From Chloroflexus sp. (GTDB lineage Bacteria > Chloroflexota > Chloroflexia > Chloroflexales > Chloroflexaceae), in NCBI GenBank assembly GCA_025057175.1, contig JANWYE010000004.1, positions 1 through 47,669 on the forward strand: a stretch of DNA of 47,669 nt, in the 5' to 3' direction. The stretch's first letter is position 1, and the number at the start of each line of letters is the position of its first letter. Position numbers and translations under genes: made by a program. This document shows positions 9,180 through 12,941 of the stretch, one piece after another. Below the pieces are notes generated by a model. It was not told where the DNA came from and searched no databases. It worked only from the letters and a program-made list of their open reading frames with translations.

Positions 9180-10124
9180 TTATTTTGATAACCTCCAAAG
9201 GTCTCTTACCAAAAATGACTGAAAATCGCTAATGTAATTGCGTAAGCGATCACTAAAAACAGTCTCCGTGTCTACATAATACACACCGTCTAATTGGTTA
9301 AGGGCGATGGTATAACCGAGAAAATGATTACTTTTAAATGTTGAGTTGACACCAAAATCATTATTTCCGATTCTAGATCGTTGCACGTCATGTAAGAAAA
9401 TTGCCACAACCGGAATGTTTCTGCCTAATAATTTTGTAAGTAAATATTTGTCAAGAAATATTTTATCAATCCGATCTTTACTTGTTGTTTTGACAGATCC
9501 TACAATCTCGTTCGGATTGATAAACCTTGGTTCTGGGTCAACAATAGTATGTTGGCGTGAGAAAACGAGATCAAGTTCATAGGATATGCTAATATCAGGA
9601 TAGTAAGGTATTGGAATGCTAACAGTGCGCGATTCGCACACCCAACCTATCTCTTGGATTATCAGCTTAATGAGCAACTCAAAAAGCTGTCCAACCCGTT
9701 TTCGGGCTTGATTAGGATTGGGTAAGGAGTCGCTAATGCAACCAATAGCTTGCTGAACAGTGTAAACAAGTTTATTGATCGCAGAGGCGCTAAGATACGC
9801 ATTAACGCTAGGCAGGCAAGTAATCTGTTCTTGATAATGGCGCAATTCTGCCAAAAAGAACAAAAATTGTTGCCAAGCATTGTCGAAATCCTGAACTGTT
9901 TCGATAAATAACCTCGTATTAATTGGCCGCGTAATTTGGAAATGGGTTGTTTGATGGTATTGGTAGAATATATAGTTGTTTCGATTTTGTGATACAATTC
10001 GTTGTATTTGAGTTTTAGGAATAAGATCGAGAAATTTTCTGCAAATTTGATAATAATCTTGTAAACTGGTTAATTTTTGAGTATTTTGAATAGCCTCTTG
10101 TAAATCGGCTAGTGCGATGGTCAT
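9180..10124 (-). CDS. Probable type II restriction endonuclease (PD-(D/E)xK), unassigned specificity
   Basis: A 314-residue protein encoded directly behind a DNA methyltransferase with a four-base ATGA overlap, so a restriction partner is the natural reading. The C-terminal half looks like a PD-(D/E)xK nuclease core: SYELDLVFSR (Asp185), then NEIVGSVKTTSKDRIDKIF (Lys212), spaced as a D...(S/E)xK site. Residues 140-165 (RKRVGQLFELLIKLII) look like the helix before the core. The N-terminal 130 residues are helical with no family recognised. I cannot name the recognition sequence. Composition is clearly AT-rich compared with the chromosome around it, which suggests horizontal transfer. Confidence 0.72.
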   Translation of the reverse strand: MTIALADLQEAIQNTQKLTSLQDYYQICRKFLDLIPKTQIQRIVSQNRNNYIFYQYHQTTHFQITRPINTRLFIETVQDFDNAWQQFLFFLAELRHYQEQITCLPSVNAYLSASAINKLVYTVQQAIGCISDSLPNPNQARKRVGQLFELLIKLIIQEIGWVCESRTVSIPIPYYPDISISYELDLVFSRQHTIVDPEPRFINPNEIVGSVKTTSKDRIDKIFLDKYLLTKLLGRNIPVVAIFLHDVQRSRIGNNDFGVNSTFKSNHFLGYTIALNQLDGVYYVDTETVFSDRLRNYISDFQSFLVRDLWRLSK

Positions 10125-11116
10125 CTTATCGACTTCCTTCGTTCAGCATTCTCAAAATCATATTGGATCCACTTCTCAATGGGCCAATCTTCTACTAACT
10201 CGATACGCTCTACTGCCCAGCGGCAGTATTCTAAGGATATATCGCATCCTTTCCAGTTTCGGTGTAATTGTTCAGCAACAACCGCAGTTGTGCCTGAACC
10301 TAGGAAAGGATCGATGACTAAGTCACCTTCGTTTGATACAGCTAAAACCAGCTTGCGTAATAATTCTTCTGGTTTTTGGGTTGGATGTGGGGTTTTTTCA
10401 TGCATGCCGTTGCATGTGGTAGGTATTTCAAGGACGTCACGAGGTTTAGCACCGCGAGCATGCGGTCGCCAAACAGAGGGATTCTTTCTTCCCCGCCCAT
10501 ATTGGCTTGTCTCTGCTTGCGGATGATCGGGATACTTCAGTGTGTGTTTCCCGTAGGGAATACGAATATCATCGATATTGAACGTGAAGTTTTTGCTCTT
10601 TCTAAAATGAAGAATACTTTCATGGGAGCGACCCCAATCTGAACCAAGATTGGCTTTGTTTTTATAATGCCAAATTAGCCAGCGACAACCTGCAAAAAAT
10701 CGTGACGCGGGGAGTTTGATGTCAGCGATGATCTCGGAAAATCCGCAAATAAATAAACTACCTGAAGATTTTAGCACCCGCGCTGCTTCTTGGATCCATA
10801 GCAGTGACCAATCAACATAAGCTGCCTGCGATTCAAATGTGTCCCACTCAGCTTTTTTGATATTGTATGGCGGATCGGCAAATACTACATCAACCGATTC
10901 TGTATCAAGCGAACGCAACCATGCAATGGCGTCACCTACCCAAATTTCACCATGGGGATGAGTGTAGTATAGAGTAGGTCGGTTTGGGTCTAGGTTTGCT
11001 TCTTCAATTGGAATAATTGTTCCTCTTAGCAATGGTTGACCAAAAAAGGAGGGGATCGATGTGTTTCGTCTGGATTCAGCCGTGGGTTTGTCGAGTTTTG
11101 GCATAGCGTCGTCCAT
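10121..11116 (-). CDS. Site-specific DNA methyltransferase (beta class, DPPY; probable N6-adenine)
   Basis: A 331-residue enzyme with the catalytic motif DPPYN at residues 81-85 and the SAM-binding motif DPFLGSGTTAV at 269-279, the beta-class order. The region between (about 185-245, with GRGRKNPSVWRPHARG) should be the target-recognition part. DPPY favours adenine N6 methylation. ATG at 11116 was chosen because AAAGG lies eight bases upstream and it clears the prfA stop by 28 bases; an in-frame start at 11188 would overlap prfA. The nuclease gene follows with a four-base overlap. It sits where prmC often follows prfA in other bacteria. Confidence 0.88.
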   Translation of the reverse strand: MDDAMPKLDKPTAESRRNTSIPSFFGQPLLRGTIIPIEEANLDPNRPTLYYTHPHGEIWVGDAIAWLRSLDTESVDVVFADPPYNIKKAEWDTFESQAAYVDWSLLWIQEAARVLKSSGSLFICGFSEIIADIKLPASRFFAGCRWLIWHYKNKANLGSDWGRSHESILHFRKSKNFTFNIDDIRIPYGKHTLKYPDHPQAETSQYGRGRKNPSVWRPHARGAKPRDVLEIPTTCNGMHEKTPHPTQKPEELLRKLVLAVSNEGDLVIDPFLGSGTTAVVAEQLHRNWKGCDISLEYCRWAVERIELVEDWPIEKWIQYDFENAERRKSIR

Positions 11117-11144
11117 GACAGACCTTTCAATGCTGTCCAGTTCC

Positions 11145-12227
11145 CTAATTATTAATCCCGCTCGCGCGTAGCCGTTCGGCGTTGTCATAGACGATCAGCG
11201 CCTCGATAATCTTGTCGAGTTCGCCGTCGAGCACTGCCGGCAAGTTCGAGAAGTTCTGGCCGATGCGGTGATCGGTAATCCGATCTTGGGGGAAGTTGTA
11301 GGTTCGAATCTTTTCGGCACGCTCACCGCTGCCGACCTGCGCCAAACGCGACGCGCCAATCTCGCGCTGTCGCTTCTCTTGCTCGCGGGCATAGAGGCGA
11401 GCGCGGAGCACGGTCATGGCCCGTTCGCGGTTTTGAATCTGCGAACGCCCGTCTTGACAGGTAACGACAATCTCTTCGGGGGTGCCGGGCTTGTAGACAA
11501 TGCGCACTGCCGAGTCGGTGGTATTGACGCCTTGCCCGCCGTGACCGGCGCTGCGGAAGACATCAATGCGCAGATCTTCCGGCTTGATCTCGATCTCGGT
11601 CTCTTCGACTTCGGGCAGCACGGCCACCGTCGCGGTCGAGGTGTGAATCCGGCCCCGGGCTTCGGTAGCGGGCACGCGCTGCACGCGATGGACGCCGCCC
11701 TCATATTTCAATCGGCTGTACGCGCCCTCGCCATGAATTTGGAAAATCACTTCTTTGATGCCGCCAATGCCATTCTCGGTCAAGCTATCGACTTCGACCT
11801 TCCAGCCCTTCGATTCGGCGAAGCGGGTATACATGCGGAACAGGTCGGCGGCAAAGAGCGCCGCTTCATCGCCACCCTCACCCTGCCGGATCTCCATCAC
11901 CACATCTTTCGAGTCGTTGGGATCGCGCGGCAGCAGCAGCAGCTTAAGCTGCTCTTCGAGTTCGGCGAGACGCTTGCGTTGCGTCTCTAGCTCTTCTTGA
12001 GCCAACGCGCGCAATTCGGGATCGTTCTCGCCCAACATTGCCTCGGCCTCGTCAATCGCGCGCTGGGTCGCCTGATACTCACGGTACGCGGCGACAACAT
12101 CTTCCAACTCGCGCTGTTCGCGGGCATACTGCTGCAAAAGGGTGACGTTGGTTGCCACCTCGGGCTGAGCCATTAATTCGGTGAGTTCATCGTAACGAGC
12201 GGCAACGGCAGCCAGTTTATCGAACAT
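11145..12227 (-). CDS. prfA: Peptide chain release factor 1
   Basis: A 360-residue class I release factor, normal length, that ends translation at UAA and UAG. The peptidyl-tRNA hydrolysis motif GGQ is at residues 230-232 within [18 protein letters not shown]. The codon-recognition loop reads [15 protein letters not shown] (about 186-200), which fits RF1 (P-x-T) and not RF2. The N-terminal part is coiled-coil rich. It lies between rpsU (upstream) and the second restriction-modification pair (29 bases downstream). Confidence 0.97.
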
Positions 12228-12413: not shown

Positions 12414-12617
12414 TTACAAACCCATTGCGGCAGCTTTGGCCAGCTTCTTGCGGCGATTGCGCTCAGCGCGGCGGCGCTTTTCTTTGCGCTGCTCGCTCTT
12501 TGAAATGAAGTGCATCTTCTCGCGATAGGTCTTGGTGATTCGCTCGGCGACGACACCCTTATTGAAGCGGCGAATGAGTTGCTCAACAGTTTCGCCTTCA
12601 CGACGTTCAACTCGCAT
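12414..12617 (-). CDS. rpsU: 30S ribosomal protein S21
   Basis: A 67-residue basic protein, MRVERREGETVEQLIRRFNK at the N-terminus and a Lys/Arg-rich tail, matching ribosomal protein bS21. bS21 binds the 30S platform near the anti-Shine-Dalgarno end of 16S rRNA. The ATG at 12617 has no ribosome binding site directly in front, but a near-complete anti-SD complement (minus strand AAGGAGGTGATA, 12719-12730) lies about 106 bases upstream; see the regulatory entry for the fold that could connect them. Confidence 0.95.
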   Translation of the reverse strand: MRVERREGETVEQLIRRFNKGVVAERITKTYREKMHFISKSEQRKEKRRRAERNRRKKLAKAAAMGL

Positions 12618-12735
12618 AGCGCTGCTGGATCGGCGGCACGGCGACCGGTATGCGGCACAGAACCGTGAGTTGGCGGGGGGCGACGCCCGGTTCTATGGTC
12701 GTATCCGCGATCCTCTCGTATCACCTCCTTCGCAA
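12618..12735 (-). promoter_or_regulatory. Structured rpsU leader with distant full-length Shine-Dalgarno sequence
   Basis: On the minus strand AAGGAGGTGATA (12719-12730) is complementary to the whole anti-SD tail of 16S rRNA, but no ATG, GTG or TTG lies at a normal distance after it. Downstream, GGATCGCGG (12705-12713) can pair with CCGCCGATCC (12627-12636, one bulged base) and, inside it, AGAACCG (12688-12694) with CGGTTCT (12659-12665). Folding would leave about 19 unpaired bases between the SD and the rpsU ATG. The fold and its role are inferred from base pairing only. Confidence 0.45.
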
Positions 12736-12941
12736 TAGATTTGGTGCGCCCCTAAGCAGCGGCAATGCCGTGATTCCTACACCGAAACTACAGTATACCG
12801 GATGGTGGGTGAATGTGCAAACGGTGAGTGGCCTTGAAAACGCGCTGAACAAGCCGTTTGGCGTTTGCCGGAGAGGGCAGATGGTGGTAGAGTCTGCCCT
12901 CTCTGCGCCTCGGCGGTGCGCTTCACGAATTCAGCCGGCAA
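12736..12941. other. Intergenic region between GH13 gene and rpsU leader, with palindrome
   Basis: With the leader entry this makes up the gap 12618-12941. It holds a perfect 11-bp inverted repeat, GAGAGGGCAGA (12871-12881) and TCTGCCCTCTC (12893-12903), 39 bases after the GH13 stop on the minus strand. It is a likely terminator or mRNA end for the maltodextrin operon; no T-run follows. The rpsU promoter should also lie here. No gene was seen. Confidence 0.5.

What the first reader, a model, noticed from the sequence alone, without database searches (positions are those of the whole stretch)
12618..12735. rpsU start may use a distant Shine-Dalgarno sequence brought near by RNA folding
The minus strand has AAGGAGGTGATA, pairing with the full anti-SD, about 106 bases upstream of rpsU and with no start codon at usual distance. 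Nested complementary segments (12705-12713 with 12627-12636; 12688-12694 with 12659-12665) would loop out about 87 bases and leave about 19 between SD and ATG. bS21 binds beside the anti-SD on the 30S, so this could be an autoregulatory device sensing bS21-deficient ribosomes.
Basis: partly seen in the sequence, partly recalled or inferred. Interest (0 to 1): 0.6.

Follow-up and report, generated by a model that had tools for sequence, protein, structure and literature searches.

The report
Folded leader splits rpsU ribosome-binding site
In green non-sulfur bacteria (Chloroflexales), the gene for ribosomal protein bS21 has its very strong ribosome-docking sequence about 50-110 bases before the start codon, and an evolutionarily conserved RNA fold loops out the bases between, which may let ribosomes lacking bS21 boost its production.

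Summary
Window 12730-12720(-) carries AAGGAGGTGAT, an 11-bp match to the genome's own 16S 3' end. It lies 102 nt before the rpsU ATG, with no SD at normal spacing. Both stems described are real: in 8 Chloroflexus genomes 98% of pair cells are kept, with 7 doubly changed pairs (0 of 500 shuffles). They belong to a larger fold: a three-way junction plus an unnoticed, covarying pseudoknot (12752-12747 with loop 12682-12677). A promoter conserved upstream of the SD puts the predicted transcript start near 12785. The arrangement (strong SD, hairpin, ATG) occurs in 29 genera from all four families sampled of the order Chloroflexales, with few exceptions. In other orders and 40 other Chloroflexota loci the SD is almost always at normal distance, so this is a derived trait. 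Sister species differ by a GAAA-capped mini-hairpin that leaves effective spacing at 7-9 nt. It works like the T4 gene 25/38 split ribosome-binding sites. Regulation by bS21-deficient ribosomes, as in Flavobacterium, is plausible but untested. No Rfam family matches. Best call: new variant of a known kind.

The parts
12792..12820 (-). Predicted sigma-70-type promoter TTGCAC-N17-TATACT; transcript start inferred near 12785
   Evidence: same promoter about 180 nt before the ATG in nearly all Chloroflexaceae; an 8-of-12 promoter match upstream of the SD in 57 of 59 relatives
12747..12752 (-). 5' strand of pseudoknot, GGGGCG
   Evidence: covaries with P3 loop (GGGGT/ACCCC, GAGGC/GCCTC, GGGAC/GTCCC in other genera); 6 of 20000 permutations as good
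12738..12746 (-). Near-invariant CACCAAATC element; could pair with the SD's GGTG as an alternative (sequestering) hairpin
   Evidence: conserved in Chloroflexaceae; role unknown
12720..12730 (-). Extended Shine-Dalgarno AAGGAGGTGAT
   Evidence: 11 contiguous pairs with own 16S 3' end, -19.2 kcal/mol; invariant in 8 Chloroflexus
12705..12713 (-). P1 5' strand GGATCGCGG
12700..12703 (-). P1b 5' strand TACG
12688..12697 (-). P2 5' strand CATAGAACCG
   Evidence: 4 of 10 pairs with changes on both sides within the genus
12672..12687 (-). P3 hairpin GGCG-loop-CGCC
   Evidence: two compensated pairs in G002 (GGTA/TACC)
12677..12682 (-). 3' strand of pseudoknot in the P3 loop, CGCCCC
12656..12665 (-). 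P2 3' strand CGGTTCTGTG
12645..12655 (-). P4 hairpin, third arm of the junction (CCG-CATAC-CGG)
   Evidence: weakest helix, variable in length
12637..12640 (-). P1b 3' strand CGTG
12627..12636 (-). P1 3' strand CCGCCGATCC (one bulged C)
12414..12617 (-). rpsU, ribosomal protein bS21, 67 aa
   Evidence: PF01165, E 5e-10; start Met conserved

Best explanation
The rpsU mRNA of Chloroflexales has a split ribosome-binding site. Its leader (about 168 nt in this genome) carries an extended SD that pairs with the 16S tail. A stable fold (a simple hairpin in most families; a three-way junction tied by a pseudoknot in most Chloroflexaceae) takes up the bases between SD and AUG, so that one 30S subunit can hold the SD and place the AUG in the P site. 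Shown here by comparison: the extended SD, its distance, the stems, the pseudoknot and their conservation. Inferred: that the SD is the initiation site, and that the arrangement is an autogenous control. In the proposed control, bS21 sits on the platform beside the anti-SD, so 30S subunits lacking bS21 bind the extended SD and accommodate the folded spacer best, and rpsU is translated most when bS21 is short. I put about 0.75 on the split-site initiation step and about 0.45 on the bS21-sensing step.
For: Extended SD 50-140 nt before the ATG and none at normal distance in 29 genera of four families. Flanks of the spacer pair within species far better than when swapped between genera: summed energy -573.5 against -365 +/- 17.8, permutation minimum -434.6. 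Within Chloroflexus 98.2% of pair cells kept, 7 doubly changed pairs, 0 of 500 shuffles. Pseudoknot covariation, 6 of 20000 permutations. Sister species L045 and L048 differ by a 10-nt indel that makes a GAAA-capped hairpin and keeps effective spacing at 7-9 nt. Promoter upstream of the SD. Other orders and families have the rpsU SD at normal spacing. Structural precedent T4 genes 25 and 38 (PMC3014915); regulatory precedent F. johnsoniae rpsU (PMC9976891).
Against: In Chloroflexaceae about 16 nt remain unpaired between SD and AUG even after looping out, more than the usual 5-10. No transcript, probing or translation data. Chloroflexus starts show a moderate SD signal (51% against 31% control at -8 kcal/mol), so the anti-SD is not evidently occluded as in Bacteroidia. 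The pseudoknot is not found outside Chloroflexaceae, so it is not needed for the basic arrangement.
Confidence: 0.6

Rival explanations
1. Classical autogenous ribosomal-protein leader: free bS21 (or another factor) binds the folded leader and represses, with the junction and pseudoknot as binding site. The distal SD simply lies inside the operator, as in the E. coli rpsO pseudoknot entrapment (from general knowledge).
For: Elaborate, conserved fold with a pseudoknot next to the SD and a near-invariant CACCAAAT in Chloroflexaceae; r-protein leaders are common (PMC7247131).
Against: Outside Chloroflexaceae the fold is a variable hairpin with little sequence conservation, which suits a spacer better than a protein site. 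No bS21 r-leader was found in the literature searched.
Confidence: 0.2
2. Standby site: the 30S docks on the single-stranded extended SD, then the fold opens and the AUG is found without SD pairing; the hairpin keeps the start region closed until a 30S is docked.
For: About 16 unpaired nt remain in Chloroflexaceae; the SD lies between two structured elements.
Against: Most Roseiflexaceae and both Herpetosiphonaceae loci keep 7-11 nt effective spacing, and the g21 indel keeps 7-9 nt, which looping out predicts and a standby site does not.
Confidence: 0.12
3. The distant SD serves a leader peptide or another element, not rpsU; rpsU itself starts without an SD.
For: Five of eight Chloroflexus have an ATG directly after the SD (GGTGATG).
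Against: An ATG within 13 nt of the SD core occurs in only 7 of 59 relatives, 0-1 nt after GGTG and so too close to use; no conserved start codon. In the window it is ATA. Relatives without the hairpin use the same strong SD directly for rpsU.
Confidence: 0.05
4. Chance 11-mer and chance stems.
For: Sites of -16 kcal/mol or better occur about once per 9 kb per strand in a sister genome; single-sequence folding scores are only modest (z about -1 for the window).
Against: Conserved arrangement in 29 genera with covariation.
Confidence: 0.01

Closest known systems
T4 phage gene 25 and gene 38 split ribosome-binding sites (PMC3014915)
   Same: Over-long SD-AUG spacing brought to a working distance by an RNA hairpin between them; conserved in a clade and absent outside it.
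   Different: T4 spacings are 22-27 nt with short hairpins; here about 30-140 nt, with a three-way junction and pseudoknot in Chloroflexaceae, a chromosomal r-protein gene and a far stronger SD. T4 cases were tested by mutation; this one is not.
Extended-SD autoregulation of rpsU in Flavobacterium johnsoniae and other Bacteroidota (PMC9976891)
   Same: The gene is rpsU, with an unusually strong SD pairing with the whole 16S tail.
   Different: There no split or fold is described (the native leader is 25 nt) and the anti-SD is occluded in most ribosomes; here the SD is about 100 nt away behind a fold and other genes show a moderate SD signal.
Structured r-protein leaders (survey PMC7247131; E. 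coli rpsO pseudoknot from general knowledge)
   Same: Structured leader with a pseudoknot around the ribosome-binding site of an r-protein gene.
   Different: No Rfam match; no bS21 leader named in the main text of that survey; ligand unknown.

Membership tests
Split ribosome-binding site (T4 gene 25/38 type) | SD too far from the start codon, none at normal distance | tested here: met
Split ribosome-binding site (T4 gene 25/38 type) | Stable RNA structure between SD and AUG supported by phylogeny | tested here: met
Split ribosome-binding site (T4 gene 25/38 type) | Effective spacing returns to about 5-11 nt | tested here: inconclusive
   7-11 nt in most Roseiflexaceae and in the two Herpetosiphonaceae loci, about 16 nt in Chloroflexus
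Split ribosome-binding site (T4 gene 25/38 type) | Destabilising the structure lowers initiation | not testable with these tools
   Needs mutants or toeprinting
rpsU extended-SD autoregulation (Bacteroidota type) | SD pairing stronger than -13 kcal/mol and among the strongest in the genome | tested here: met
   -19.2; energy scheme differs from the paper's; 11-mer at only two possible start sites in the genome
rpsU extended-SD autoregulation (Bacteroidota type) | Anti-SD occluded in normal ribosomes, other genes SD-less | tested here: not met
   moderate SD signal in a sister genome; the occlusion itself is not testable here
rpsU extended-SD autoregulation (Bacteroidota type) | bS21-lacking ribosomes initiate better on rpsU | not testable with these tools
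   Needs biochemistry
r-protein leader | Conserved covarying structure directly upstream of an r-protein gene only | tested here: met
   one copy in the genome (E 1e-34; next 0.7), before rpsU
r-protein leader | Binding of the encoded protein | not testable with these tools
   Needs binding assay
Known Rfam r-protein leader families | Match to a curated covariance model | tested here: not met
   no hit at gathering score; only chance-level hits at E up to 10

The most novel reading that the evidence does not exclude
The folded spacer is a ribosome-composition sensor: the hairpin or pseudoknot and bS21 compete for the same space on the 30S platform beside the SD/anti-SD helix, so only bS21-lacking 30S subunits hold the split site well. 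That would be an mRNA structure that reads the presence of one ribosomal protein inside the ribosome.
Probability: 0.3. Interest if true: 0.85.

Novelty: new variant of a known kind. Interest (0 to 1): 0.63.

Why it matters
It is a clade-wide, chromosomally encoded split ribosome-binding site supported by covariation (no other turned up in the literature searched here), and a candidate bS21 leader absent from Rfam. It joins two known phenomena, loop-out SDs and extended-SD control of rpsU, in a phylum where I found neither described. Natural pairs of species with and without the hairpin allow direct tests of how far an SD may lie from its AUG and whether bS21 gates initiation.

Tried and rejected
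Chance: rejected by conservation, covariation and permutation. Known Rfam family: none. tRNA or tmRNA: none. Upstream ORF using the SD: not conserved. Transcription start between SD and ATG: 8-of-12 promoter-like sites there in 8 of 59, none conserved. A covariance model from the MAFFT alignment (R1) recovered four Chloroflexaceae loci outside its training set (E 1e-15 to 3e-6), but P1 stayed misregistered in several rows, so it was not used for pair counts; alignment-free flank swapping and genus-only counts were used instead. RNAalifold on the same alignment found mainly a CACC/GGTG pairing, a possible SD-sequestering hairpin that I could not separate from conservation for other reasons. The Roseiflexus alignment was only inspected. 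Simple scans did not confirm the terminator-like T-runs of some relatives.

Full report
What was checked. The finding concerns the minus strand upstream of rpsU (12617-12414, Pfam Ribosomal_S21), followed downstream by prfA. The sequence is as described: AAGGAGGTGAT at 12730-12720, ATG at 12617, no SD between. The draft genome's 16S rRNA ends in GGATCACCTCCTTT (L093), so the SD makes 11 contiguous Watson-Crick pairs. Sister records retrieved with the same protein are named Chloroflexus.

Conservation of the distant SD. rpsU upstream regions were taken from the order (82 genomes searched, 71 with a match). In f1 (Chloroflexaceae), f4 (Roseiflexaceae), f2 and two loci of f3 (Herpetosiphonaceae) the best match to the 16S tail is -16 to -19 kcal/mol. 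It sits mostly 50-140 nt before a conserved ATG (about 30 nt in part of genus g21), with no comparable SD at normal distance (in L062 a G-rich stem strand before the ATG also scores, -14). Exceptions are few. L040 (KatS3mg057) and some members of g21 (L048, L068-L070) have the same strong SD directly before the ATG. Herpetosiphon has a divergent bS21 with a normal SD. In 19 loci from other orders of the class the strong SD, where there is one, is near the start, with a few unclear cases. In 40 loci from other Chloroflexota families 29 have their best SD near the start and only one (L211) has a strong distant one. The strong rpsU SD is therefore probably older than the split, and the split is a derived trait of Chloroflexales.

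Chance. In 400 kb of a sister Chloroflexus genome, both strands, there are 89 sites at -16 kcal/mol or better, so one in the 150 nt before a given gene has a chance of about 2%. The same arrangement across 29 genera cannot be chance.

Structure. In the window the spacer folds as P1 (12713-12705 with 12636-12627) continued by P1b, then P2 (12697-12688 with 12665-12656) capped by P3 (12687-12684 with 12675-12672), and a third arm P4 (12655-12645). Pair counts over eight Chloroflexus genomes, for these stems together with the pseudoknot: 98.2% of cells paired, seven pairs with changes on both sides (shuffled 2.2 +/- 1.1, none of 500 shuffles as high), slid controls 30-49%. The double changes are in P1, P2 and P3. 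Across 29 genera the spacers are too diverged to align well, so I compared pairing of each species' own flanks with pairing of flanks swapped between genera: summed duplex energy -573.5 against -365 +/- 17.8, best of 2000 permutations -434.6. That test does not model phylogeny or base composition, and the shortest spacer (L045) is uninformative in it.

Pseudoknot. In most Chloroflexaceae GGGGC lies just 5' of a near-invariant CACCAAAT, and the 8-nt P3 loop carries GCCCC. Variants covary: GGGGT/ACCCC in genus g5, GAGGC/GCCTC in g17, GGGAC/GTCCC in g7, and the flanking base often follows (C/G, T/A). Six of 20000 permutations among ten genera reach the observed pairing. Within Chloroflexus this helix hardly varies, so its support comes from the wider family. 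The SD thus lies in the linker between the pseudoknot strand and P1. An alternative pairing of CACC with the SD's GGTG is possible and could be an off state; that is speculation.

Effective spacing. In most Roseiflexaceae and the two Herpetosiphonaceae loci 7-11 nt remain unpaired between the SD's GTGA and the AUG, which is normal; f2 is less uniform. In Chloroflexaceae about 16 nt remain if only P1 is counted. In genus g21, L045 has GGTGA-AAGGGGAAAC-CCTACGCGC-ATG and L048 has GGTGA-CCTACGCGC-ATG: one 10-nt indel adds or removes an AGGG-GAAA-CCCT hairpin and effective spacing stays at 7-9 nt. This is the clearest natural evidence for looping out.

Transcription. A promoter of the form TTGC..-N17-TATACT or TATAAT stands upstream of the SD in nearly all relatives; an 8-of-12 match is found there in 57 of 59. 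In the window it is at 12820-12792, implying a start near 12785 and a leader of about 168 nt. This is prediction, not mapping.

Mechanism. The best reading is a split ribosome-binding site, as in T4 genes 25 and 38, where spacings of 22-27 nt are reduced to 5-11 by structure and tested by mutation (PMC3014915). The regulatory reading borrows from Flavobacterium johnsoniae, where ribosomes lacking bS21 translate rpsU through an extended SD (PMC9976891). Sampled Chloroflexus starts show a moderate SD signal and rarely reach -16 kcal/mol, so rpsU is an outlier in strength; but nothing here shows anti-SD occlusion or a response to bS21. The idea that the fold and bS21 compete for space on the platform is my inference. 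Rivals are a conventional free-protein leader and a standby site; both remain possible.

Known or new. No Rfam family matches, and the model built here finds one good copy in the genome. The survey of 20 new r-protein leaders does not mention S21 or Chloroflexi in its main text (PMC7247131), and in a review of r-protein regulation the bS21 section covers Flavobacterium and Francisella (PMC10931766). Further literature searches found no report of this leader, within an open-access library only. I file it as a new variant of a known kind: it works like a split ribosome-binding site, while the regulatory half of the claim awaits experiment.

Noticed in passing
L050/L054 (G044) and L051/L053 (G057), Herpetosiphonaceae: Two bS21 genes per genome: a Chloroflexales-type copy with a hairpin-split SD and a Herpetosiphon-type copy with a normally spaced SD.
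   Followed up: partly
L015, L020, L024 upstream of rpsU: GC-rich hairpin followed by T6-T7 shortly before the ATG, terminator-like, partly overlapping the P1 3' strand; possible attenuation variant of the leader. A simple scan did not flag it in L024.
   Followed up: partly
L034, L036, L049 (Roseiflexus-type leaders): A further hairpin upstream of the SD seems to covary by eye (GGTGC/GCACC, GGTGTG/CACACC, GGCGC/GCGCC), so the SD may sit between two hairpins there too.
   Followed up: no
L211 (G174, another Chloroflexota family with two bS21 copies): The only one of 40 loci outside the class with a strong SD-like site far (-38) from the start of a bS21 gene.
   Followed up: no
L130, L138, L170: Public MAG records titled Singulisphaera, Gracilibacteria and Thermoflexus carry Chloroflexales-type rpsU; probably mislabelled bins.
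   Followed up: no
window 10121-11188 and 9180-10124, minus strand: DNA methylase (PF01555) next to a 314-aa ORF without Pfam match; possible restriction-modification pair.
   Followed up: no
L094 about 1501-1560 (own genome, contig C208): The only other AAGGAGGTGAT directly before a start codon found in the genome, AAGGAGGTGATGCCCATG, begins a 14-codon ORF near a contig end.
   Followed up: no
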